Below are positions 24,212 through 61,189 of a stretch of 62,358 nt of DNA, in pieces. Each line of letters begins with the position of its first letter. Position 1 is the first letter of the stretch. The DNA is from Clostridia bacterium (GTDB lineage: Bacteria; Bacillota; Clostridia; Christensenellales; Aristaeellaceae). The translations under genes and the position numbers were made by a program. The stretch is from contig JAFUDS010000018.1 of the NCBI GenBank assembly GCA_017464305.1, forward strand, positions 1 through 62,358, given 5' to 3'. The notes beneath the pieces were generated by a model. It saw nothing but the letters and a program-made list of their open reading frames with translations. It had not been told where the DNA came from and ran no database searches.

Positions 24212-24766
24212 ATGGCGAAACTCAAGGATGTAGCAGATTTTTTCATTGCGCTGGCGCAAGACATGGCAGAACTGGAGATGGGGGACGCCATGACGAATCT
24301 GCGGCTTCAAAAGATGCTTTATTTTGCCCAAGGGTGGATGCTGAAGAGAACGGGAAAACCGCTTTTTGATGAGAACATCGAGGCATGGCAATATGGGCCT
24401 GTGGTGCCGGAATGCTATGAATGGTACAAGGGATGCGGGAGCAATCCGCTAAAAGCGGAAATGCCTGCAAGAGATAAGTTTTCACCCGAAGAATATGCAC
24501 TTCTGCTGGATGTATGGGCAGAGCTTTCCAAATATTCCACGTCTCAACTGGTCTCCATGACCCACGAAAAGGGAACCCCTTGGTACGAGGTATGGAATTA
24601 CACAAAACAGCGGGAAATTGATCGAGAAGCGATTAAAAGTTTCTTTATCAATAGCGAGCTCCCTGGAAGCAAGGAGAAACTCGCCGCGATACCGACAATA
24701 AAGCCCCTCTTCAGAGAGAATGGCATTCCTGTATTCTCTGCTAAGGAAGTGTTCAATAATGAGTAA
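24212..24766 (+). CDS. Panacea (DUF4065/SocA-like) antitoxin
   Basis: The protein (184 aa) has a Panacea domain, seen in MTNLRLQKMLYFAQGWML, the ENIEAWQYGPVVPECY core and the PWYEVWN end. Panacea domains neutralise many unrelated toxins and normally stand directly before or after the toxin gene. Here the next gene, overlapping by 8 bases, encodes a PemK/MazF-like protein, giving an antitoxin-toxin order. The C-terminal 30 residues (SELPGSKEKLAAIPTIKPLF) may be the toxin-binding part; this is inference. GACGGAG is the likely ribosome binding site. Confidence 0.85.
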   Translation: MAKLKDVADFFIALAQDMAELEMGDAMTNLRLQKMLYFAQGWMLKRTGKPLFDENIEAWQYGPVVPECYEWYKGCGSNPLKAEMPARDKFSPEEYALLLDVWAELSKYSTSQLVSMTHEKGTPWYEVWNYTKQREIDREAIKSFFINSELPGSKEKLAAIPTIKPLFRENGIPVFSAKEVFNNE

Positions 24767-25421: not shown

Positions 25422-27566
25422 ATGACCAAGTTTGCAAAGATCCTGTCCCTGGTTCTGGCCCTGGCTATGCTGTGCAGCGTGGCGCTGGGCGAAGGCGCTC
25501 AGCTGGCAGCGGAAGCGCAGACCGAAGTGGATACCGACGCTTATGAAGCGGCTTCTACCGAGATCTACGACGCTGTGCTGGGCGATTTTTATTCCTATTA
25601 TTCCGAAGCGAAGCAGGAGGTTGAGAACCTCAGCCTGCGGTACGCCCTGATGGCGATTTCCGAGGCGAAGATTCTGGGCTCCGCCGTGATGATCCCCCTG
25701 GAGAGCCGGGGCGGCAACTATGCCATCACCCGGATCGCTCCCCGTTCCGCGAACACCACCCTGTGGGGCAACGACGCGGATCGTGTGCATCAGATGATCA
25801 TCGTCAAGGAAGGCATCCTGAAGGCCTCCGAAGTCGAAGATCTGCGCAACCTGTGGAACGAAGTCCATGGCACCGGCGAATATGACGCCAAGGCCAAGGA
25901 ATATCTGGCCAGCAAGGGTTACGAGCTGACTGACGTATACAACTACGCCTATTCCAGCGATCCCAACACCTGGGACGTGCTGGCCACCTCCAAGCAGGCG
26001 GACTCCCGGGCCATCATCAACACCTATGACGGCCTGTATGAGTACGACGAGGAGAACATCCAGCAGCCCGCTCTGGCCACTGGTTACACCGTGTCCGAAG
26101 ATAACCTGGTTTACACCTTTACCATCCGGGAAGGCGTGGCTTGGGTGGACAGCCAGGGCCGGAAGGTCGCCGACGTGAAGGCGGACGACTGGGTTGCCGG
26201 TATGCAGCACATGATGGACGCCGCCGAGGGCCTGGAATACCTGGTGGGCCCCGAAGGCTGCAACATCGCTGGCGCCGAAGCTTACATGAACGGCGAGACC
26301 ACCGATTTCAGCACCGTGGGCGTGAAAGCGCTGGATGACTACACGCTGGAGTATACTCTGGCTGGCCCCAGCCCCTTCTTCACCACCATGCTGGGCTATG
26401 GTGTGTTCGCTCCTCTGAGCCGTGACTATTACACCTCTCAGGGCGGTCAGTTCGGCGCGGATTACAACGCCGAGGCGGAGACCTACCTGTACGGCAAGGA
26501 TCCTGACCACATCGCCTACAATGGTCCCTATCTGGTGACCAACTCCACCAAGGAGAACACCATCGTGTTCCAGGCCAACGACAGCTACTGGAACAAGGAT
26601 CACATCAACATCCACACCGTGAACTGGTACTACAATGAAGGAACCGACGCTCTGAAGCCCTACAACGACTTCAAGGCTGGCATTCTGTCCAGTACCGGAT
26701 TGAATTCCTCCTCTGCGGAGCAGGCGAAGGCGGATGGCCTGTTCGATGAGCATGCTTACACCGCGCAGACCGACGCTACCTCCTTCATGGGCTTCTTCAA
26801 CGTGAACCGTACTGCGTTTGCCAACTTCAACGACGCCACCACCGCTGTTTCCAGCCAGACCGTGGAAGACGCTGCCCGGACCAAGCAGGCCATGAGCAAC
26901 ATCAACTTCCGTCGGGCCCTGCTGATGAGCTTGGACCGCGGCGCCTATGAAGCCCAGAGCGTGGGCGAGGAGCTGAAGTATGCTTCCCTGATCAACAGCT
27001 ACACCCCCGGCAACTTCGTGTCCCTGCCGGACGAAGTGACCGTGCAGATCAACGGTGAAGACAAGACCTATCCCGCCGGCACCTACTATGGTCAGATCAT
27101 GCAGGATCAGCTGGATGCTGACGGCGTGACCGCCAAGGTTTGGGACGCTGAGACCGAGATGAGCTCCGGCTTCGACGGATGGTACAACGTGGAGAACGCC
27201 AAGGCCTATCTGGACAAGGCGATTGAAGAACTGGCGGCGGAAGGCCTGGTCATCGATGCGGATCATCCGATCTACCTGGATGTGCCCACCTTCACCGGCA
27301 GCGAAGTGTACAACAACCGTGAGGAAGCCCTGAAGCAGTCCGTGGCTGCCGCTTCTGATAACCGGATCGTCATCAACAAGGTAGACTGCCCCACCAGCAG
27401 CGACTGGTACTACGCGGGCTATTACTACAACACCGGATACGAAGCCAACTTCGATATCTGCGACCTGAGCGGCTGGGGTCCCGACTACGGCGATCCGCAG
27501 AGCTATCTGGACACCATGCTGCCCGACTACGCCGGATACATGGTCAAGGCTCTGGGTATCTTCTAA
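25422..27566 (+). CDS. Peptide-binding protein (SBP_bac_5), apparently circularly permuted
   Basis: The 714-aa protein starts with a Sec signal peptide (cleavage after about residue 23, ALG|EG) without a lipobox cysteine. Residues about 36-128 resemble the normal C-terminal end of these proteins (SLRYALMAISEAKILGSAVM, then NYAITRIAPRSANTTLWG). The usual mature N-terminus follows only from about residue 172 (YNYAYSSDPNTWDV), and the protein stops right after the WGPDYGDPQSYLDTMLPDY segment, where normal members continue with the RYA...EA...IP tail. The order of parts is therefore changed, like a circular permutant. It heads an operon with OppBCDF and should capture oligopeptides outside the cell. 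Confidence 0.88.
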   Translation: MTKFAKILSLVLALAMLCSVALGEGAQLAAEAQTEVDTDAYEAASTEIYDAVLGDFYSYYSEAKQEVENLSLRYALMAISEAKILGSAVMIPLESRGGNYAITRIAPRSANTTLWGNDADRVHQMIIVKEGILKASEVEDLRNLWNEVHGTGEYDAKAKEYLASKGYELTDVYNYAYSSDPNTWDVLATSKQADSRAIINTYDGLYEYDEENIQQPALATGYTVSEDNLVYTFTIREGVAWVDSQGRKVADVKADDWVAGMQHMMDAAEGLEYLVGPEGCNIAGAEAYMNGETTDFSTVGVKALDDYTLEYTLAGPSPFFTTMLGYGVFAPLSRDYYTSQGGQFGADYNAEAETYLYGKDPDHIAYNGPYLVTNSTKENTIVFQANDSYWNKDHINIHTVNWYYNEGTDALKPYNDFKAGILSSTGLNSSSAEQAKADGLFDEHAYTAQTDATSFMGFFNVNRTAFANFNDATTAVSSQTVEDAARTKQAMSNINFRRALLMSLDRGAYEAQSVGEELKYASLINSYTPGNFVSLPDEVTVQINGEDKTYPAGTYYGQIMQDQLDADGVTAKVWDAETEMSSGFDGWYNVENAKAYLDKAIEELAAEGLVIDADHPIYLDVPTFTGSEVYNNREEALKQSVAAASDNRIVINKVDCPTSSDWYYAGYYYNTGYEANFDICDLSGWGPDYGDPQSYLDTMLPDYAGYMVKALGIF

Positions 27567-27794: not shown

Positions 27795-29363
27795 ATGACG
27801 AAATACCTGATTCGGCGATTGGTGCACGGGCTGGTGTCCGTGATCATCGTGGTTGCCATCGTCATGATTCTGATCTATTCCTGCCTGGACCGGCAGCTGA
27901 TTTTTGCCCAGGACCCGGTGTTCACCCAATTGGGCAACAACCAGAAGATAGTCTATCAGTATCGGAAATGGGAGGATTACGGCTACATCGATTATGTGCC
28001 CTATCCTGAATGGTTGCAGTCCATCGCCGCGGAGGAGAACCTGTCCCAGGAAGAGGTGACCGCCCTGTCCGCCTTCGCCCAGAAGGCCACGGGGGATTCC
28101 GAGGAAGTGGCGGCCTATGTGGCCCGATTCACCGAATACTACGAGAGCCAGGGCTACACCGTGACCCGGCTGGACGCCAAGATGAGCAAGAAGAAGGTGG
28201 CGCCCGGCGGCCAGCAGCAGCTTTATGCCTACAAGGATAAGCCTCTGCTGGGCCGGCTGTGGAACTATTTGACGGGCCTGATCAGCGTGGACAACATCCA
28301 CTTTGTGCAGGAGGACATCGGGGAGCGGGGCTTGACCTTCACCCTGCATGATCCGCTCTACGGCGGGAAGACCTTCGCGCCGGCCATCATCGGTAACGGC
28401 ACGCTGCACAAGTACCTGCTGTACACGGATGGGAAATTCCCCTTCATTCACCAGAACCTGGTGACCATCAACCTGGGCAAATCCTACACCGTCAACAGCG
28501 GGGTGGATGTGTTCCAGAGCATGAACGCGCCCCAGGGCTCCTATGTGTCCTCCGTGATCACCTATCCCACCGGGCACACGGAATCCAGCGCGGACGACTT
28601 GCACAGCGCCACCTACGCGTACGGCTCCCGGGAGGCGAACCTGGTGAACCGGGATCGGTTTACCGACGATTACACCAATGTGGTGACGGTGAAGGGCGGA
28701 CTGAGCCAGATCGGCTACTCCTTCGTCATCGGCATTATCGCTTCCGCCCTGGCTTATCTGCTGGGGGTGCCCCTGGGCATCATCATGGCCCGGAAGAAGG
28801 ACAAGCTGGTGGACCGGATCGGTACGATCTACATCGTGTTCATCCTGGCCGTGCCCTCCCTGGCCTACATTTTCCTGTTCAAGGCCATCGGCTACAGCCT
28901 GGGCCTGCCCACCACCTTCAACATGGACTCCAATGACTGGCGGATGTACGCCCTGCCCATCGTCTCCCTGGCGCTGCCCTCGGTGGCCAACCTGATGAAA
29001 TGGCTGCGGCGGTACATGATCGACCAGATGAACTCCGACTATGTGAAGTTCGCCCGCAGCGGTGGCCTTTCCGAGCGGGAGATCTTCACCCGGCATATTC
29101 TGAAAAACGCCATTATCCCCCTGGTGCACGGCATCCCCGGCACGGTGCTGGGCGCGCTGATTGGCGCCATCATCACCGAGCGGGTGTACGTGGTGCCTGG
29201 CGCCGGTAACCTGCTGACCAAGGCCATCAATATGTACGACAATGGCGTCATCGTGGGCGTGACCTTGTTCTATGCCCTGTTGAGCGTGATTTCCATCATT
29301 CTGGGCGACGTGCTGATGTCCATGGTGGATCCCAGAATTTCCTTTACATCGAAAGCGAGGTGA
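27795..29363 (+). CDS. oppB: OppB/AmiC-type permease with large extracytoplasmic domain
   Basis: The protein (522 aa) has one N-terminal helix (about residues 12-32), then an outside region of about 265 residues, then five helices with the binding-protein-dependent transport motif (YVKFARSGGLSEREIFTRH). Usual OppB proteins are about 300-320 aa; only streptococcal AmiC types are about 500, with a comparable domain. The outside domain may contact the permuted binding protein. It lies 228 bp after the binding-protein gene and 7 bp before oppC. Confidence 0.88.
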   Translation: MTKYLIRRLVHGLVSVIIVVAIVMILIYSCLDRQLIFAQDPVFTQLGNNQKIVYQYRKWEDYGYIDYVPYPEWLQSIAAEENLSQEEVTALSAFAQKATGDSEEVAAYVARFTEYYESQGYTVTRLDAKMSKKKVAPGGQQQLYAYKDKPLLGRLWNYLTGLISVDNIHFVQEDIGERGLTFTLHDPLYGGKTFAPAIIGNGTLHKYLLYTDGKFPFIHQNLVTINLGKSYTVNSGVDVFQSMNAPQGSYVSSVITYPTGHTESSADDLHSATYAYGSREANLVNRDRFTDDYTNVVTVKGGLSQIGYSFVIGIIASALAYLLGVPLGIIMARKKDKLVDRIGTIYIVFILAVPSLAYIFLFKAIGYSLGLPTTFNMDSNDWRMYALPIVSLALPSVANLMKWLRRYMIDQMNSDYVKFARSGGLSEREIFTRHILKNAIIPLVHGIPGTVLGALIGAIITERVYVVPGAGNLLTKAINMYDNGVIVGVTLFYALLSVISIILGDVLMSMVDPRISFTSKAR

Positions 29364-29370
29364 TCCCGAG

Positions 29371-30348
29371 ATGAATGAGAACCTGATTGATCTGAAGGAT
29401 CTGAACATGAGCGAGGAGGAGCTGTTCTCCCATGTGGACCATTCCTCCCTGGAATCGGAAAAGATCACCGCGCCTCGCTATTCCTACTGGCGCAGCGTGT
29501 TTCGGGTGTTCTTCCGGAAGCGGATCAACATCGTGATCCTGAGTCTTTTTGCGGTGATCCTGGCCTTTACCTACATCTATCCCCTGCTGGTGGACTACGA
29601 TCCCTTCGCCAATTTGATGAACTCCTCGGCCAAGCATCTGCTGCCCGGGGTGGCCATGGAGCGGCTGGGGAAGAACATCCACTGGATTTTAGGCGCTGGG
29701 GCCTCCGGCCAGTCCACCTTTGATGCAGTTTGGTTCGGCAGCCGTATCTCCGTCACCATGGCCTTTATCTGCGCCGCCATCAACCTGATCGTGGGCGTGG
29801 TCATCGGCGCGGTGTGGGGCTTCTCCAAGAAGGTGGATATCATCATGACCGAGGTGTACAACATCATCGGCAACGTGCCCTACATTCTGTTCATCTCCGT
29901 GCTGGTGCTGATTTTCTCCGCCGGCTTCTGGACCATGGTTTTCGCCCTGACCATCACGGGATGGCTGGGCATCGCCTACTTCATCCGGACCCAGGTGGTC
30001 ATCATCCGGGACCGGGAATATAACCTGGCCTCCCGCTGCCTGGGGACGCCCATCATGCGGATCGCCATGAAGAACATTCTGCCCTTCATGACCTCCGTCA
30101 TCGTGACCCTGGCGGCTACGGAAATCCCCTCCTACATCTCCTACGAGGTGTTCCTGTCCTACATCGGCATGGGTATGTCCGATATGTCCCTGGGCCGGCT
30201 GATCTATCAGGCGGAAAACGCCATGCTGACGCCGGGATGGCAGTTTGAGTTCTGGTCTCCGGTGGCGGTAGCCTCCATCATTACGATCGTGCTCTATGTG
30301 GTGGGTCAGAATCTGGGCGACGCCTCTGATCCCCGGACCCATATGTGA
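29371..30348 (+). CDS. oppC: OppC-type peptide permease
   Basis: The protein (325 aa) has the extended cytoplasmic N-terminus of OppC proteins, a first helix (residues about 48-68), a periplasmic loop and five more helices with the EAA-like loop REYNLASRCLGTPIMRIAMK that docks on the ATPases. Normal family length. It overlaps nothing and is 8 bases from the OppD start. Confidence 0.9.
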   Translation: MNENLIDLKDLNMSEEELFSHVDHSSLESEKITAPRYSYWRSVFRVFFRKRINIVILSLFAVILAFTYIYPLLVDYDPFANLMNSSAKHLLPGVAMERLGKNIHWILGAGASGQSTFDAVWFGSRISVTMAFICAAINLIVGVVIGAVWGFSKKVDIIMTEVYNIIGNVPYILFISVLVLIFSAGFWTMVFALTITGWLGIAYFIRTQVVIIRDREYNLASRCLGTPIMRIAMKNILPFMTSVIVTLAATEIPSYISYEVFLSYIGMGMSDMSLGRLIYQAENAMLTPGWQFEFWSPVAVASIITIVLYVVGQNLGDASDPRTHM

Positions 30349-30356
30349 GGTGGCCT

Positions 30357-32117
30357 ATGGAGAAGATGCAAAATGAGCAGCATGTGCTGCTGAGCGTAAA
30401 GGACCTGGAGGTAAAATTCCGGGTACGGGGCCGGATTTTGACGGCCATTCGGAACATTTCCCTGGATATCTATGAAAACGAGTCCATCGCCATTGTGGGC
30501 GAATCCGGCTCCGGCAAATCCGTATTCACCAAGACCTTCGCGGGTATGCTGGATTCCAACGGCTTCATCGAGCATGGGGACATCCTGTTCGACGATGCGG
30601 AGCTGGCGGATACCACCGTGGCCCTGACCCCGGCCATCCGGCGGGAGCTGGCGGCGGCGGAAAAGAAGCTGAACGAGCACAGTCGCCTGGAGGCGGGAGC
30701 CGCCACCTGGCGGGAGATGCAGGCCCTGGAGACGGAGAAGGAGCGCCGGGCCACGCTGTCGGAGGAAGAGCTGGAAAAGCTGGAGGGCAGCCTGAGCGAG
30801 CTGGTGTTCCAGCGGACGGAGCTGTTTAACCTGCGGCAAACTTACGACCCGAACCGGGAGAAGGACAAGATTCGCCAGGCGGGGCAGCAGCTGAAGGAAA
30901 TGGACGCCCGGATTAAGCAGATGCAGGCGGACAAGAAGGAAAAGATCGCGGCCCGGAAGCGGGAAGCCGCGGCGGATCACGATTTTCAGCAGCGGACGGC
31001 GGAGCGGATTCACGCCCTGCAGACCCAGTATAAGGAAGAAACCAGCCGGGAGATCACGGCGGACCAGCGGCAGCGGAATGCCCGGCTGGCCCGGGAGATC
31101 GTGCTGTCCGTGGGCCGCTACGGCGCGGTGAAGCGGCGGCAGGCCACGGGAAAGCTGCTGGAAGAGCTGAAGAAGGCCATGCGGGAAGGGAAGAACCTGG
31201 CGGAAGAGTCGGTGTGCAACGCCGTTTTCGAGCCGGTGACCTTCCGGGTCCGCTTCCTGGACGAAAATGGAGACCGGCTCCACGGCACCTGCGTGCTGGA
31301 CCTGGCTAAGATCAAGGACGCCACGGACTGGACCAAGGTCCGGGGAACCCGTATCGCCACGGTGTTCCAGGATCCCATGACCAGCCTGAACCCCATCATT
31401 ACCATCGGCAAGCAGATCACCTCCGTCATTCTGAAGCATCAGGACTGCTCCGAGGTGGAGGCCCGGAAGCGGGCCCTGGAGCTGATGAAGAAGGTGGGTA
31501 TTCCCAACGCGGAAAAGCGCTTTGATGATTATCCCTTCCAGTATTCTGGCGGCATGCGCCAGCGCATCGTCATCGCCATCGCCCTGAGCTGCCAGCCGAA
31601 GATCCTGATCTGCGACGAGCCCACCACGGCCCTGGACGTGACCATTCAGGCCCAGATTCTGAAACTGCTGAAGGATCTGCAGAAGGAATTCCAGTACACC
31701 ATCGTGTTCATTACCCATGACCTGGGGGTGGTGGCCAACATCGCGGACCGGGTGGCGGTGATGTACGCTGGGCAGATCGTGGAATACGGCGAGGTGGAGG
31801 AGGTCTTCTACGACCCGCGGCATCCCTATACCTGGGCTCTGCTGTCCTCCCTGCCCCAGCTGGCGAAGAAGGACACCGTGCTCTATTCCATCACGGGCAC
31901 GCCGCCCTCCCTGTACAACAAGATTGTGGGGGATCCCTTCGCGCCCCGGAACCCCTATTGCATGAAGATTGACACCCTGAAGGAGCCGCCCATGTTCCAG
32001 GTTTCGAACACCCATTTTGCCAAGACCTGGCTGGAGGATCCAAGATCCCCGAAGGTGAAGAAGCCGGAGATCATCGAGAATATTCACGAGAAGCTGGTAG
32101 AGGCTTTTAATATTTAA
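30357..32117 (+). CDS. oppD: OppD ATPase with roughly 235-residue insertion
   Basis: The protein (586 aa) is a peptide ABC ATPase with Walker A GESGSGKS (48-55), Q-loop [11 protein letters not shown] (about 336-346), signature YSGGMRQR, Walker [13 protein letters not shown] and the oligopeptide C-terminal region. Between the strand GDILFDD (residues 74-80) and [11 protein letters not shown] (about 315), where normal OppD has only a few residues, it has an extra highly charged, mostly helical region with many E, K, R and Q residues (30597-31301). The usual length is about 330-360 aa. Catalytic motifs look intact, so it should still drive peptide uptake. The chosen ATG at 30357 has GAGGTGG upstream. 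Confidence 0.87.
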
Positions 32118-32134: not shown

Positions 32135-33424
32135 ATGGCAAATCAAGCAAACAACGCGGCGCATCTGCCGGAGCACGGGGAGATCAACCAGGAGGGCCGG
32201 GAAATCCTGCTGAGCCTGAAGAATGTGGATATCACCTTCGGCAAGGACGAGAACGCCGTTCGGGCGGTGAAAAACGCCTCCTTTGATATTTTCAAGGGGG
32301 AGACCTTCTCCCTGGTGGGGGAATCTGGATCCGGCAAGACCACCATCGGCCGGGCGGTGATCCGGGTGAATCCCTGCGCGGCGGGCGAGATTCAGTATAA
32401 GGGAGTTCGCATCTCCGGAAAGATCCCCCGCAGCCTGGACCGGGAAGTGATCCGGAACATCCAGATGGTTTTCCAGGACCCCGCCGCCTCCCTGAACGAG
32501 CGGGCCACGGTGGATTACATCATCTCCGAGGGGCTGTATAACTTCCACCTGTTCGAGAACGAAGCGGACCGGGTGAAGAAGGTGGAGACCATCATCGACG
32601 AGGTGGGCCTGCTGCCGGAGCATCTGACCCGCTATCCCCACGAGTTCTCCGGCGGACAGCGGCAGCGCATCGGTCTGGCCCGGGCCATGGTCATGGAGCC
32701 GGAGCTGGTCATCGCCGACGAGCCCATCTCCGCCCTGGACGTGTCCATTCGGGCCCAGGTGCTGAACCTGATGAAGAAATTCCAGAAGGAGCGGGATATC
32801 ACCTACCTCTTCATTGCCCATGACCTGTCCATCGTCCGGTTCATCTCCGACCGCATTGCTGTCATTTACAAGGGAGATATTGTGGAGATCGCTGAGACGG
32901 ACGAGCTGTTCAATTATCCCCTGCATCCCTATACCCGGTCCCTGATTTCCGCCATTCCCATTCCGGACCCGAAGCTGGAAAAGCACAAGGCGCTGTTTAC
33001 CTACGACCCTTCTGTGCATGATTATTCCACGGATAAGCCCTCCCTGCAGGACATCGGGCATAATCACTTCGTCTTCGGCAACGCCAAGGAAATCGAAGCC
33101 TACAAGGCCCAGCGGGAATCCGGCACGCCCCTGAAATCCATCACCATCCTGCCGGAGGGGGAGGAAGCGCCCTCCAGCGTGGAGACGGACACCACCGTGG
33201 ACGAGGACTTCCTGCAGACCCCGGTGCATGACACGGGAAACATCTGGCTGGCGGTGCTGGCCTTCTTCCTGCCGGTCTTAGGCTTGGTGGGGACGCTGCT
33301 GTTCAAAAAATATCACCATTTCCGGAACTATAAGGTCTGCAAGAAGGGGACCATCGCGGGCTTCGCGGTGATCGGCGTGATCATCGCGCTGTTCGGCCTC
33401 TTCTTGCTGCTATCGGTGCTATAG
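32135..33424 (+). CDS. oppF: OppF ATPase with C-terminal membrane hairpin
   Basis: The protein (429 aa) is the partner ATPase, with Walker A GESGSGKT (near residue 70), Q-loop [11 protein letters not shown], signature [10 protein letters not shown], Walker [13 protein letters not shown] and the usual oligopeptide C-terminal domain to about residue 335. After an acidic linker the last 60 residues form two hydrophobic helices (about 370-390 and 406-428) joined by a Lys/Arg/His-rich turn ([15 protein letters not shown]). Normal OppF proteins end without membrane helices. The tail would tether the ATPase to the membrane. Confidence 0.88.
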
Positions 33425-33442: not shown

Positions 33443-34654
33443 ATGAAACGGGAAGCGAGAGATATCAGAGAACGAATGCCCAGACCGGTAAAGCGCATTC
33501 CCCTGGAGGAAAACCCCACGGGAAAGCGAATCGCCGGCGCCCTGGTGGCGCTGGCGGTGGCCGGTCTGGCGCTTTTCTTTGCCCTGCGGGGATTGACGCA
33601 GGTGGACGCGGGATGGACCTGGATCGAAGGGGATTCCGCGGAGGGACCCGTGACGGAGGTGCGCCTGTGGGCGGAGCTGGGGGCCGAGAGCGACAGCCCC
33701 CTGACGGAGCGGAGATATTTGACGAAGCTCTTCTCCCAAGCCTCCCGGGAGCTGTACACCCTGTTCACCCCCTATGAGATCGTCTCCGGGGTGCAGAATC
33801 TATGGTGGATCAATCATCACCCCAATGAGGAGATTCAGGTGGATCCTCGATTGTACGGCGCCCTGCGGGAAAGCGCGGAGGCCGGACGGCAGATTTTCTT
33901 GGGGCCGGTTTATGAAATCTGGGACGGGGTTTTTTTCAGCGAAAGCGACGGGGAAGCCCAGGAAGCGGATCCCCTGCTGAACCCGGAGACGGGGGCAGTG
34001 CTGGCGGAAATGATGGCGCTGCTGGGCCGGGAGGATCAGATTTCCCTGGATTTTCTGGCGGAAAACAAGGTGCGGCTGAACCTGGCGCCGGAGCTGGCGG
34101 CCCTGGGCGCGGAAATGGGGACGGACCGATACCTGGACTTTGGATGGACTCAGAATGCCTATATCGCGGATTTGCTGGCGGAGGCGCTGGGGCAGGCGGG
34201 ATGGACCCGGGGCATCCTTTCCAGCCCGGATGGATTCATCCGGTGCCTGGATGACCGGGGGCCCTTTACCCTGGAGGTGCTGACATCGGAGACGGGAAAA
34301 ATCTCCCAGGCCGCCCTGGCGGAATATGAGGGCCCGGCGGCGGCGCTGCAGCTGCTGCCCACGCCCCAGGGCACCCGACGTCGGTTTTACCAATACGGGG
34401 ACGGAACGCTGCGAACGACCTGGATCTCAACGGAGGACGGGCAGCCCCATCAGGGGGCGGACAGCTGGACGGTGCTCTCTCCCGGCGGAACCTGCGGCGG
34501 AGCGCTGCGGGCGACGCTGGAGCTGATCACCGCGGAGAAGCTGGGTGCGAGTCAGATGGAGACGCTGGCCCAGGAAGGAATCAGTGCCCTGGTCCAGCAA
34601 GGGGACAACATGTATTTGATTGGCGATGGCCTCCGGCTGATGGAGGGACCATAA
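33443..34654 (+). CDS. Membrane-anchored ApbE-like protein, probably degenerate
   Basis: The protein (403 aa) has a short basic N-terminus, one membrane helix (about residues 28-48) and an extracytoplasmic domain. It follows the layout of FAD:protein FMN transferase (ApbE): WWINHHPNEEIQVDPRLYGA, then PVYEIWD, then LDFGWTQNAYIADLLAEAL, lining up with the ApbE stretches VDP..., ...LW and LDxGAIAKGYAVD. The lysine/glycine active-site positions of the last motif are changed, and no HIIDPRTG motif is visible, so it may be a pseudoenzyme. It starts 18 bp after oppF, so it is in the peptide-import operon. Confidence 0.65.
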   Translation: MKREARDIRERMPRPVKRIPLEENPTGKRIAGALVALAVAGLALFFALRGLTQVDAGWTWIEGDSAEGPVTEVRLWAELGAESDSPLTERRYLTKLFSQASRELYTLFTPYEIVSGVQNLWWINHHPNEEIQVDPRLYGALRESAEAGRQIFLGPVYEIWDGVFFSESDGEAQEADPLLNPETGAVLAEMMALLGREDQISLDFLAENKVRLNLAPELAALGAEMGTDRYLDFGWTQNAYIADLLAEALGQAGWTRGILSSPDGFIRCLDDRGPFTLEVLTSETGKISQAALAEYEGPAAALQLLPTPQGTRRRFYQYGDGTLRTTWISTEDGQPHQGADSWTVLSPGGTCGGALRATLELITAEKLGASQMETLAQEGISALVQQGDNMYLIGDGLRLMEGP

Positions 34655-34683
34655 AACAGGAGAACCCATCTCCTGTTTTTTAT
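34654..34683 (+). terminator. Terminator of the first peptide-import operon
   Basis: AAACAGGAGA / TCTCCTGTTT, 10-bp perfect stem, 5-base loop, T-tract. Confidence 0.9.
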
Positions 34684-54721: not shown

Positions 54722-56635
54722 ATGAAAAAGTTTCTCGCCCTGGTAATGGCGCTGTGCATGGTTTTGACCATGGCGTCCTTTGCCTCCGCAGAAGAGCTGA
54801 CCGAGCTGAACACCTATGAGACGCAGGCTCGTGAGCTGGAGACCTGGAATGTGCATTATTCCCAGGCTGCGGTTGACCTGAATGTGCTGTGCAATCTGTT
54901 CGACGGCCTGCTGACCAACGACAACCACGGCAACCTGAAGCCCAACGCCGCCAAGTCCTACGAGACTCCCGATGACGGCCAGACCTGGATCTTCACCCTG
55001 AACGAGGGGATGAACTGGATCACCAACGACGGCGAAGTGCAGGCTCCTGTGCTGGCTTCTGACTGGGCCACCGGTCTGGAGTGGGTGCTGAACTATGCGA
55101 AGAACGCGTCCTACAACGTGTCTATGCCTGCCGAGATGATCGCTGGCGCCAATGATTACTACGAGTACACCAAGACCCTTGCGGAGACTGATGAAGACGC
55201 CGCCAAGGCCCTGACCGCCGACGCGGACAGCAAGTTCGCCGAAATGGTGGGCGTTGCTGTGGATGACGAAGCTGGCACCATCACCTATTCTCTGGTGGAC
55301 AAGCTGCCCTACTTCCCCTCTGTGGCCACCTATAACTGCCTGTATCCCCTGTCTGCCGACCTGGTGGAAGAAGTGGGTGTGGACGGATATCGTGACATCA
55401 CCTGGGAAGATATGTGGTACAACGGCGCCTATGTGGTGACCTATTATGAATTCCAGAACCAGAAGGTGCTGGAGAAGGCCCCCAACTACTGGAACGATGC
55501 CAATGCCAAGCGGTTCGACAAGGTGACCATCAAGATGGTGGAATCCGCTGCGACTGCCTATCAGCTGTTTAAGGAAGGTCAGCTGGATCACGTGTCTCTG
55601 GACACCGCCACCCTGCAGGCCATCTATAACGAGACGGAAGACGCCGAGCTGAAGGCCAATCTGGTTGAATCCCGGCCCACTAAGTATTCCTATCAGATTC
55701 ACCTGGTGTATGCGAAGAACCTGGAAGACGGCGAGACCCCGGACACCAACTGGAACACTGCCGCCGCCAACGAGAATTTCCGCAAGAGCCTGTACTATGG
55801 CCTGGATCTGACCGGCTATTTCGCCCGGACCAATGCCATCAACCCCCTGAGCTGCCAGAACTATGTGTACACTGGAAACGGCGTATCCTTCACCTCTGAC
55901 GGCACCGATTATACGCAGCTGGTTCGCGACGAGCTGGGCCTGCAGTATGACTACGAGAACTACACCCGTTTTGATGCCGAGAAGGCCGCTGAATACAAGG
56001 CCAAGGCCATCGAAGAGCTGACCGCCAAGGGCGTTACCTTCCCCATCGAAGCGGATTACTACATCTCTGGCGCTTCCACCGTGGCTGCCGAGACTGCCAA
56101 GGTGCTGGAGAACATCTTCTCCGAAGGCCTGGGCGATGATTACATCAAGCTGGTTACCAAGACCTACACCAGTATTGGGCCGGAAGTGCGTACTCCCCGG
56201 AAGGCTTCCTTCTACATCAACGGCTGGGGCGCTGACTTCGCCGATCCCATCAACTTCCTGGGCCAGGAGACCTATGATGATCCTCAGGCCTACTATGCCA
56301 ACAACTACAGCCACTGCAACGAGAACGACGATCCTGATTTGATCGCGGCCTACAAGGAATTCACCGACCTGGTGGTGGAAGCCAAGGCCATCACCGGCGA
56401 TCTGGATGCTCGTTACGCTGCCTTCGCCAAGGCGGAAGCCAGCTTCATCAACCATGCGCTGGCCATCCCCTGCAACTATGAAGTGGCTTGGGAGTTGACC
56501 AAGATCAACAACTACAGCAAGGTTTACAGCATGTATGGCATGCAGGGCTATCGCTACGTGGATTGGGAAACCAGCACGGAAGCTTACACCACTGAGCAGA
56601 TGGAAGCCCTGGCTGCTGCCTATGCCGCGGAATAA
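54722..56635 (+). CDS. Peptide-binding protein (SBP_bac_5), conventional order
   Basis: The protein (637 aa) has a signal peptide (MKKFLALVMALCMVLTMASFASA|EE) without a lipobox cysteine at the cleavage point. The mature part starts as in usual family members (NVHYSQAAVDLNVLCNLFDGL) and ends with the typical C-terminal segment (LDARYAAFAKAEASFINHAL, then YSMYGMQGYRYVDW). This makes it the reference for the permuted protein encoded at 25422. It should bind oligopeptides outside the cell and feed the OppBC-DF system encoded downstream. Ribosome binding site AAGGAGG. Confidence 0.95.
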   Translation: MKKFLALVMALCMVLTMASFASAEELTELNTYETQARELETWNVHYSQAAVDLNVLCNLFDGLLTNDNHGNLKPNAAKSYETPDDGQTWIFTLNEGMNWITNDGEVQAPVLASDWATGLEWVLNYAKNASYNVSMPAEMIAGANDYYEYTKTLAETDEDAAKALTADADSKFAEMVGVAVDDEAGTITYSLVDKLPYFPSVATYNCLYPLSADLVEEVGVDGYRDITWEDMWYNGAYVVTYYEFQNQKVLEKAPNYWNDANAKRFDKVTIKMVESAATAYQLFKEGQLDHVSLDTATLQAIYNETEDAELKANLVESRPTKYSYQIHLVYAKNLEDGETPDTNWNTAAANENFRKSLYYGLDLTGYFARTNAINPLSCQNYVYTGNGVSFTSDGTDYTQLVRDELGLQYDYENYTRFDAEKAAEYKAKAIEELTAKGVTFPIEADYYISGASTVAAETAKVLENIFSEGLGDDYIKLVTKTYTSIGPEVRTPRKASFYINGWGADFADPINFLGQETYDDPQAYYANNYSHCNENDDPDLIAAYKEFTDLVVEAKAITGDLDARYAAFAKAEASFINHALAIPCNYEVAWELTKINNYSKVYSMYGMQGYRYVDWETSTEAYTTEQMEALAAAYAAE

Positions 56636-59092: not shown

Positions 59093-61189
59093 ATGAGCGA
59101 AACCAGTGAAAAGATCAGCACCCGCATGCGGGATCAGATCGAGGAAATGGGAAGGAATGTGGATTTTGACGCCAAGGCGAAAAGAATCCTGTCCCAGGAG
59201 CCCATTCTTTCCGCCCAGGAGGTGGAGGTAACCTTCTCCCTGCGGGGAAACAAGCTGACCGCCATCCGGCGGACATCCCTGGACCTGTACGAAGGGGAGA
59301 CCCTGGCCATCGTGGGCGAGTCCGGGTCCGGAAAGAGCGTGTTCACGAAATGCTTCGTGGGCATGCTGGACAAGAACGGTTCTATCACTCACGGTTCCAT
59401 CATGTATGATGGGCAGGATCTGACCAAGCTGACGGAGAAGCAGTGGCTGCAGATTCGCGGCAAAAAGATCGCCATGGTGACCCAGGATCCTATGACCAGC
59501 CTGAACCCTCTGAAGACCATTGGCTATCAGATTCAGGAGAGCGTGGAGCTGCATCAGGGGTTGAAAGGCAAAGCGGCCCGGGAGGAGACCTACCGGATCC
59601 TGCGGGAGGTGGGCATTTCCGAACCGGAGCGGCGCTACAAGCAGTACCCCCACGAGTTTTCCGGCGGCATGCGCCAGCGGGTGGTGATCGCCATCGCCGT
59701 GGCTTGCAAACCCCAGATTCTGATATGCGACGAGCCCACCACGGCCCTGGATGTGACCATTCAGGCTCAGATTTTGGACCTGATTCGTCGGCTGCAAAAA
59801 GAGCAGAACATGACCATCATCTATATCACCCATGATCTGGGGGTGGTGGCCAATGTGGCGGACCGGGTAGCCGTGATGTACGCCGGGCAGATCATCGAGG
59901 TGGGCATGTGCAACGAGGTCTTCTTCGATGCTTGGCATCCTTATACATGGGCTTTGCTGCAAGCGCTGCCGCAGCTGGGCGTCAAGGGGGAGAAACTGCC
60001 CGCCATCGACGGTACGCCACCCAACCTGTTCAACCAGATTCAGGGCGATGCCTTTGCGCCCCGGAACAAGAAGGCCCTGAACATCGATTTCCTGGAAGAA
60101 CCGCCCATGTACGAAGTGACGGCGACGCACATGGTGAAGGCCTGGATCCGTGATCCCCGGGCGCCAAAGGTAGAGCAGCCCACAGCCATCGCTCGCCTGG
60201 CGGAGGCGAAGGAAGAGACGGGGACAGACCCGAACGTGATTCACCCTCATCAGGATCCTAACCGGGAGACGCTGATCCAGGTGAAAAATATGCAGGTCAC
60301 CTTCGGTACCGGACGGCATAAGTTCGTGGCGGTGGACGACGTCAACTTTGAAATCTATAAGGGCGAAACCTTCTCCCTGGTAGGGGAGTCCGGCTCTGGA
60401 AAAACCACCATTGGCCGGGCCATTGTTCGGATCAACCCCATCACGAATGGTGAGGTGCTGTTCCGGGGTGAACGGGTCAGCGGTAAGATCAGTAAGGAAC
60501 TGGACACCAAGGTGATCCGCTCCATGCAGATGATTTTCCAAGATCCCATGGCCTCCCTGAACGAGCGGGCCAAGGTGGACTACATCGTGTCTGAAGGGCT
60601 GATGAATTTCCACCTGTATGAAAACGAGCACGATCGGCAGGACAAGGTGCAGGCCGCGCTGCAGGAAGTGGGATTGCTGCCGGAATTCTCCAGCAGATTC
60701 CCCCATGAGTTCTCCGGCGGTCAGCGGCAGCGCATCGGCATTGCCCGCAGCCTGATCATGCAGCCGGAATTCATCGTGGCGGACGAGCCCATCTCCGCCC
60801 TGGACGTTTCCATCCGGGCCCAGGTGTTGAACCTGCTGAACGACATGAAGAAGAAGCGGGGCTTGACCTACCTCTTCATCGCGCATGACCTGAGCGTGGT
60901 GCGGTTCATTTCTGACCGCATCGCGGTCATTCACAAGGGGCGGATCGTGGAGCTTGCGGAGGCGGAGGAGCTGTTCTATCGGCCCATGCATCCTTACACT
61001 AAGGCGCTGCTGTCCGCGGTGCCCAACCCCAACCCCTATCTGGAGCGCAGCAAGAAGCTGCTGGTGTACGATCCCTCGATTCATGACTATTCCACCGAGA
61101 AACCGGTCTGGTGCGAGCTGCTGCCGGGTCACTTTGTGTACGGCAACGAGCGGGAGCTGGATGGCTATCGGAAGGAGTTTAAACTGTAA
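59093..61189 (+). CDS. Fused OppD-OppF ATPase
   Basis: The protein (698 aa) contains two complete ATPases. The OppD half has Walker A GESGSGKS (75-82), [12 protein letters not shown], signature FSGGMRQR and [12 protein letters not shown]. The OppF half has Walker A GESGSGKT (431-438), [11 protein letters not shown], signature [10 protein letters not shown] and [11 protein letters not shown]. Both halves end with the oligopeptide C-terminal region (the OppF half with YDPSIHDYS). It has no coiled-coil insertion and no membrane tail, unlike the separate OppD and OppF of the first operon. It completes the second importer. Confidence 0.95.

What the first reader, a model, noticed from the sequence alone, without database searches (positions are those of the whole stretch)
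25422..27566. Peptide-binding protein that looks circularly permuted
Seen: residues about 36-128 hold the motif order expected at the C-terminus of SBP_bac_5 proteins (RYA..A..EA....A.MIP, then YAITRIAPRS...WG), which in the paralogue encoded at 54722 lie near the end (RYAAFAKAEASFINHALAIP). The usual mature N-terminus starts only near residue 172, and the protein ends right after the segment that normally precedes the displaced part. Both ends of the fold lie in the same lobe in known structures, so a permutation is topologically possible. I know of no described circularly permuted oligopeptide-binding protein.
Basis: partly seen in the sequence, partly recalled or inferred. Interest (0 to 1): 0.78.

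Follow-up and report, generated by a model that had tools for sequence, protein, structure and literature searches.

The report
Circularly permuted peptide-binding protein family
A peptide-catching protein of a gut bacterium has its last fifth moved to the front, joined end to start, and a whole family in related gut bacteria shares this rearranged order; a similar rearrangement was known in one group of sugar-binding proteins but I found none described for peptide-binding proteins.

Summary
After its signal peptide, the 714-aa SBP_bac_5 protein at 25422-27566 begins with residues ~37-165, homologous to the C-terminal end of canonical Ami-type peptide-binding proteins. Residues ~171-714 match everything before that end. 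Swapping the pieces gives one end-to-end match: 96 of 96 distinct permuted proteins (window included) gain, median +57 bits, against a canonical-only profile. The segment's profile finds the four solved pneumococcal Ami-type proteins, at their C-termini. No ORF examined carries both copies. The permuted proteins form one clade beside AmiA-like ones, so one old event is simplest. The predicted structure is confident (pLDDT 92.8, pTM 0.89), but no topology-independent alignment could be run.

Most likely it is a working oligopeptide receptor of an Ami/Opp-type importer. By inference the new ends lie in lobe 2, the old, fused ends in lobe 1. A permuted binding protein is known for glucose (Treponema MglB-2, PMC4990184); my searches of an open-licence library listed none for peptides. 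Permuted loci mostly also have an OppD ATPase with a ~230-residue insert (77 of 80 measured) and an OppF with a hydrophobic tail (68 of 77 measured).

The parts
25422..27566 (+). Circularly permuted SBP_bac_5 oligopeptide-binding protein, 714 aa
   Evidence: ORF; PF00496 on residues 215-701 at 133.9 bits (cut-off 32.4); permutation
25422..25493 (+). Signal peptide, about residues 1-24; no lipobox in the window protein
   Evidence: read from the sequence; cleavage site not computed; lipobox by own pattern
25530..25916 (+). Displaced segment, residues 37-165, homologous to the C-terminus of canonical Ami-type SBPs
25530..25709 (+). Part of the segment (residues ~37-96) equivalent to the end of Domain III, lobe 2
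   Evidence: inferred by mapping the alignment onto AliD domain limits in PMC11192437, assuming a chain-to-residue offset of about 25
25710..25805 (+). Part of the segment (residues ~97-128) equivalent to the last strip of Domain I, lobe 1
   Evidence: same inference
25818..25913 (+). Helices (model H135-148, H154-164) at the place of the Ami-type C-terminal helix alpha-19
   Evidence: secondary structure; mapping inferred as above
25917..25934 (+). Short joint between old C-terminus and old N-terminus, residues ~166-171
   Evidence: limits (164 | 171); (helix ends 164, strand starts 172)
25932..27563 (+). Body, residues ~171-714, equivalent to canonical residues from the mature N-terminus to the cut
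   Evidence: 171-699 = AmiA chain 14-497; hhalign of the body profile E 4.5e-96
27474..27497 (+). WGPDYGDP motif (residues 685-692), place of the Trp and Asp that bind the peptide N-terminus in AliB
   Evidence: W685, P687, D688, G690, D691, P692 invariant in 66 rows; pattern in 95 of 96 permuted proteins (the exception, L096, has WGPDYGDA); role from PMC11192437; equivalence inferred from alignment
27534..27563 (+). New C-terminal tail, residues 705-714; in 84 of 96 permuted proteins the chain ends at the 30th residue counted from the motif Trp
27795..29363 (+). OppB/AmiC-type permease, 522 aa; about 300 residues precede the permease domain, as in the large AmiC
   Evidence: BPD_transp_1 at 324-516; 42% identity over residues 4-521 to the OppB beside a canonical AmiA-like SBP, L090
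29371..30348 (+). OppC/AmiD-type permease, 325 aa
   Evidence: BPD_transp_1 and OppC_N
30345..32117 (+). OppD-type ATPase, 590 aa, with about 230 extra residues between Walker A and Q-loop (roughly 30597-31300)
   Evidence: limits of the insert estimated by eye
32135..33424 (+). OppF-type ATPase, 429 aa, with a C-terminal hydrophobic tail (about 33230-33421)
   Evidence: tail read from the sequence
54722..56635 (+). Canonical-order paralogue (comparison): segment counterpart at its C-terminus, 56354-56629

Best explanation
A natural circular permutation of an Ami/Ali-type oligopeptide-binding protein. Shown: residues 37-165 are the homologue of the canonical C-terminal ~100-120 residues, the rest is the homologue of everything before, each present once; the permuted form is one clade in the tree. 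Inferred: an ancestral AmiA-like gene was duplicated in tandem in frame, or otherwise fused tail to head, and a new start (with a signal peptide) and stop were fixed inside a lobe-2 loop just after the peptide-binding WGPDYxDP motif; the old ends, both in lobe 1, are joined by about 6 residues. Inferred: the protein folds to the usual two-lobed clam, grips the peptide's free amino end through the kept Trp/Asp motif, closes, and delivers to the OppBCDF importer encoded directly downstream. What changes is where the chain leaves the fold: the secretion signal (and, in the lipoprotein members, the membrane tether) now hangs from lobe 2 instead of lobe 1.
For: Out-of-order double match to AmiA and AliC. 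Segment profile hits the C-terminus of canonical relatives: hhalign 98.3%, E 1.7e-14; the four Ami-type proteins of the PDB at E 7.9e-9 to 2.9e-7; by HMM over the ORFs of all loci then held, 104 permuted, 41 canonical (one of them, L006, weak at 1.1e-2), 0 with both copies, 13 with no detectable segment (some regions were fetched twice). Rotation gains 56.9 bits (median; least 0.5 in the frameshifted L076) in 96 of 96 against a canonical-only profile and extends coverage from 466 to 584 of 591 positions; with a shuffled segment the gain disappears (rotated better in 95 of 96). One clade, SH-aLRT 99, joined to AmiA-like proteins at 96. 78 of the 80 loci hold an intact ORF in this order (L072 is cut by the contig end, L076 is split over two frames). 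AF2 model pLDDT 92.8, pTM 0.89, residues 41-170 in blocks of 83-98; Foldseek best hit AmiA, 549 columns, TM 0.75 by target length. The segment folded alone falls to 67-74 over fragment residues 51-90 (protein 87-126) and has no strand of 3 or more residues, against strands 90-94 and 100-103 in the whole protein, as expected for a piece that needs the body.
Against: No coordinates and no topology-independent aligner, so it was not seen directly that the segment fills the vacated place. Foldseek of the isolated segment found no SBP (best E 3.2). Single-sequence match of the segment to AmiA is weak (i-E 0.077), and the segment alone matched only 1 of 5 canonical relatives by phmmer. No intermediate with both copies was found, so the route is inferred. 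The tether idea does not apply to the window protein itself, which has no lipobox.
Confidence: 0.93

Rival explanations
1. The front segment came from another SBP gene: the C-terminal end of a neighbouring SBP was fused in front and the host protein's own end was lost. The product is permuted in order but chimaeric in origin.
For: The tree of the short segment is poorly resolved (125 columns for 131 rows; AmiA-like canonical rows need 2 changes, other canonical rows 3); segment HMM scores of AmiA-like and other canonical proteins overlap.
Against: Permuted segments plus AmiA-like C-termini as one clade is not rejected (p-AU 0.953, held tree higher in likelihood); body and segment trees do not contradict each other as far as they resolve.
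Confidence: 0.1
2. Ordinary SBP with an unrelated extra N-terminal domain and a truncated C-terminus; the motif resemblance is chance.
For: Pfam gives the segment no match above cut-off; the isolated segment model finds no SBP fold.
Against: Profile significance and position specificity, rotation gain in 96 of 96, conserved C-terminal end point.
Confidence: 0.02
3. Gene-model or assembly artefact (wrong start, frameshift, chimaeric contig).
For: The window is from a draft genome in 51 contigs, 68.6% complete.
Against: Same order in 78 of 80 loci from other assemblies, including isolates of Roseburia and Butyrivibrio; signal peptide sits directly before the segment; apart from the canonical paralogue, only one copy in six frames of the window.
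Confidence: 0.01
4. The permutation was kept because it moves the membrane tether to lobe 2, improving docking or reducing strain on the binding site, rather than by drift. (A reading of why it persists; it does not exclude the best explanation.)
For: 65 of 96 permuted proteins have a lipobox by my pattern (a stricter pattern on 82 of them gave 55); the authors of the MglB-2 paper raised a tethering role for their permuted protein; derived ATPases in the same operons.
Against: 23 of 96, including the window, have neither lipobox nor twin-Arg signal, 7 have a twin-Arg-like signal, although Lgt matches occur in 21 of 21 genomes of the genus; the early-branching permuted group L093-L103 includes members without a lipobox. 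No functional data.
Confidence: 0.25

Closest known systems
Pneumococcal AmiA / AliB / AliC / AliD (SBP cluster C; PDB 8a42, 8qlj, 8qlh, 8qlc; PMC11192437)
   Same: Related by sequence over both pieces, best four Foldseek hits, WGPDYxDP motif, OppB next door large like AmiC (AmiC size)
   Different: Order of the two pieces is swapped; window protein lacks the lipobox; operon ATPases carry an insert (OppD) and a hydrophobic tail (OppF)
TpMglB-2 (Tp0684) of Treponema, proposed 'Type Ic / Cluster Bc' (PMC4990184; abstract and passages seen)
   Same: A natural circularly permuted ligand-binding protein of an ABC importer, with relatives in Gram-positive gut bacteria
   Different: Sugar binder of Type I/cluster B fold; there strands near the N-terminus of E. 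coli MglB lie near the C-terminus, here the C-terminal end lies at the N-terminus; taken to be an independent event
Mycoplasma OppD (NCBIfam NF043079, MMSYN1_0167; that the name denotes a Mycoplasma gene is recalled)
   Same: Window OppD matches it end to end, 724 bits, 15-586 = 1-557, just under the 740 cut-off; OppD of genome G175, which has a permuted SBP, passes it with 756
   Different: Concerns the ATPase; in the OppA model of the same set (NF043077) the SBP body starts near position 34-50, i.e. it looks canonical (stretches); no Mycoplasma genome was examined

Membership tests
SBP_bac_5 (PF00496) | Pfam model above gathering score | tested here: met
   133.9 bits against 32.4, residues 215-701
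Cluster C SBP, canonical | Linear order with Domain I strips at N-terminus and C-terminus of one chain | tested here: not met
   order swapped
Ami/Ali-type oligopeptide-binding protein | Closest relatives by sequence and fold | tested here: met
Ami/Ali-type oligopeptide-binding protein | C-terminal helix alpha-19 packing on lobe 1 | tested here: inconclusive
   helices 135-148 and 154-164 at the equivalent place; packing not visible
Ami/Ali-type oligopeptide-binding protein | Trp/Asp that bind the peptide amino end | tested here: met
   residues in window and invariant in 66 rows, full motif in 95 of 96; binding itself not tested
Ami/Ali-type oligopeptide-binding protein | Lipobox | tested here: not met
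   absent in window; present in 65 of 96 permuted proteins (own pattern)
Natural circular permutant | Both pieces homologous to a canonical protein, swapped, each once | tested here: met
Natural circular permutant | Same three-dimensional fold apart from connectivity | tested here: inconclusive
   confident model and AmiA as best hit; topology-independent alignment not available
Cluster Bc (MglB-2) permuted LBP | Type I/cluster B sugar-binding fold | tested here: not met
   sequence and fold hits are SBP family 5 / cluster C proteins (first 50 rows)

The most novel reading that the evidence does not exclude
A permuted 'cluster C' class of peptide receptors, in which signal or tether emerge from lobe 2, defines a derived Ami-type importer that evolved as a unit with an OppD carrying a ~230-residue insert beside its ATP site and an OppF with a membrane tail, so that docking and ATPase coupling differ from known Opp/Ami systems.
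Probability: 0.3. Interest if true: 0.75.

Novelty: new variant of a known kind. Interest (0 to 1): 0.6.

Why it matters
Peptide-binding proteins of the OppA/AmiA kind are well-studied bacterial receptors, yet a whole clade in common gut genera (Roseburia, Butyrivibrio, rumen Clostridia) has its ends in another place. Profile annotation hides this: Pfam reports an ordinary SBP_bac_5. It gives a natural experiment on whether the position of the tether matters for delivery to the importer, and a second case, in another structural cluster, of permuted binding proteins in Gram-positive gut bacteria.

Tried and rejected
Plasmid collection tblastn: 1133 records match, none over 80% of the query; the 20 rows listed match only within residues 163-704, at most 24.7% identity. 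Isolated-segment structure and its Foldseek search: no SBP hit; taken as lack of an autonomous fold, not as support. Mycoplasma OppA as a possible second permuted group (hint): rejected, because body stretches start near position 34-50 of that model. Strict coupling of OppD insert and permutation: rejected as a rule, 3 of 80 measured permuted loci lack it (L063, L064, L069), and on the body tree these sit inside the permuted clade in two places, so the insert looks lost there. Origin of the segment from another gene's C-terminus could not be excluded.

Literature: ten searches of an open-licence PMC library, of which sought AmiA structures and MglB-2; listings only were seen (one search listed 20 of 34 papers), and passages of two papers (PMC4990184; PMC11192437). 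No circularly permuted OppA-type protein stood out in the listings. Subscription papers and preprints are not covered.

Full report
Observation. The gene at 25422-27566 encodes 714 residues. PF00496 covers 215-701. A single-sequence PDB search matched AmiA in two pieces in swapped order: 171-699 to chain 14-497 and 49-164 to chain 520-635, the latter weakly (i-E 0.077); AliC gave the same order (i-E 0.4 for the second piece). In six frames of the whole window the segment profile matches only the front of this gene and the end of the paralogue at 54722.

Profile tests. The segment profile aligned with 27 canonical relatives at their C-terminus (prob 98.3, E 1.7e-14); alternative placements were at E 0.021 and 0.65. 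Against the PDB it found AliB, AliD, AliC and AmiA, all within chain 504-628, and one further hit at E 0.36. Plain BLAST of the segment found 7 of 34 canonical-type ORFs, at their C-termini. By HMM over the ORFs of the loci then held: 104 permuted, 41 canonical (one weak), 0 with both, 13 without a detectable segment; some regions were fetched more than once, and the sample was gathered by similarity to the window protein.

Rotation test. A profile was built from 36 canonical rows alone (591 positions). Swapping the pieces raised the best-domain score in 96 of 96 distinct permuted proteins, the window's included (median 56.9 bits, least 0.5 in the frameshifted L076), and median coverage from 2-466 to 2-584; for the window 344.7 to 398.3 bits. 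With a shuffled segment the score was like that of the body alone (rotated better in 95 of 96). The window protein alone against five canonical relatives: rotation joined the two pieces into one match for L090, L091 and L092, and lengthened the second match for L099 and L100.

Distribution. Of 153 pattern matches in the genome collection 113 were relatives and the best 80 were kept; 78 of 80 hold an intact ORF in the permuted order, among them Roseburia inulinivorans and Butyrivibrio isolates. In whole genomes, matches that run from near the start (residue 22 or earlier) to residue 713-714 occurred in 22 of 150 of the window's family (read from the table) and 5 of 391 of the class (E <= 1e-45); with the alignment as query, 2 of 299 of the phylum matched nearly the whole model (E <= 1e-60). 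The window's own genome is counted each time. Only a few candidates per genome were scored (up to 7, 2 and 3), so these are lower bounds. In one search three more genomes passed the threshold: G822 and G827 are canonical, G765 has no detectable segment.

History. On a body-only tree (96 permuted, 35 canonical, 3 ungrouped rows; quick method) the permuted rows are one side of a branch (SH-aLRT 99) and join AmiA-like canonical proteins (96). Some long branches meet in that tree, L127 among the AmiA-like rows, and the root is drawn at the midpoint. The segment-only tree has few columns; there the permuted rows again form one side (96), and permuted plus AmiA-like as one clade is not rejected (p-AU 0.953).

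Structure. AF2 with 66 rows (window plus 65 of the 80 loci): mean pLDDT 92.8, pTM 0.89. Foldseek, which aligns in sequence order, put AmiA first with 549 columns of a 627-residue target, TM 0.75 by target length, rmsd 2.7; about the length of the body, which fits the segment being out of order but does not show where it lies. The segment folded alone loses its strands (pLDDT 67-74 there, pTM 0.48) and finds no SBP in the PDB.

Anatomy. From AliD's published domain limits (PMC11192437, passages) and the alignments, with an inferred numbering offset of about 25, the cut falls near AliD 524-529, inside Domain III (lobe 2). The segment then runs through the rest of lobe 2, crosses to the last Domain I strip and ends in helices at the place of alpha-19; a short joint leads to the old N-terminus in lobe 1. 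The Trp and Asp of WGPDYGDP, which in AliB hold the peptide's amino end according to that paper, are invariant in 66 rows (equivalence inferred) and lie just before the new C-terminus, which is the 30th residue counted from that Trp in 84 of 96.

Operon. The SBP is followed by OppB (522 aa), OppC (325 aa), OppD (590 aa) and OppF (429 aa). Of 93 permuted loci, 80 had a measurable OppD and 77 of these carry an insert between Walker A and Q-loop (largest gap in the locus counted); 0 of 6 canonical operons measured do (L090, L091, L127, L131, L150, L152). Of 77 permuted loci with a measurable OppF, 68 have a hydrophobic C-terminal tail. The window OppD also fits the model NF043079 end to end. In 249 genomes of the phylum (up to 5 candidates scored in each), 14 passed E <= 1e-130 with that model, and only the window's genome and G175, both with permuted SBPs, matched it over its full length.

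Anchoring. 65 of 96 permuted proteins have a lipobox by my pattern, 7 a twin-Arg-like signal, 23 neither (the window among them), 1 is truncated; an earlier, stricter pattern on 82 proteins gave 55, 7 and 20. Lgt matches occur in 21 of 21 genomes of the genus. So a tether argument cannot be general.

Verdict. Natural circular permutation of an Ami-type peptide-binding protein, most simply one old event, spread in gut Clostridia. The precedent is MglB-2 in another SBP cluster (PMC4990184, abstract and passages). Whether the new ends matter for function is open.

Noticed in passing
window 30345-32117 (about 30597-31300): OppD-type ATPase with ~230 extra residues, mostly charged and helix-like by eye, between Walker A and Q-loop; fits model NF043079 end to end; absent from the six canonical-SBP operons measured.
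   Followed up: partly
window 33230-33421: OppF-type ATPase ends in a hydrophobic tail that looks like two membrane helices; such a tail in 68 of 77 permuted loci with a measurable OppF.
   Followed up: partly
L054, L056, L057, L084: Permuted SBPs with a twin-Arg-like signal (RRDFLK); L056, L057 and L084 carry two permuted SBP genes in the same locus.
   Followed up: no
window 25422-25493 and 54722; L090, L091: Several SBPs of the window's bacterial family, permuted or canonical, lack a lipobox although each of 21 genomes of the genus has 2 to 7 Lgt matches.
   Followed up: partly
window 33443-34654: Gene directly after OppF with a borderline ApbE match, 26.8 bits against 25.6, before a terminator-like hairpin at 34653-34679.
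   Followed up: no
window 59093-61189: Two ABC_tran and two oligo_HPY stretches in one 698-aa ORF, apparently fused OppD and OppF, near the canonical paralogue at 54722.
   Followed up: no
window 24212-24766: SocA/Panacea antitoxin-like protein upstream (PF13274).
   Followed up: no
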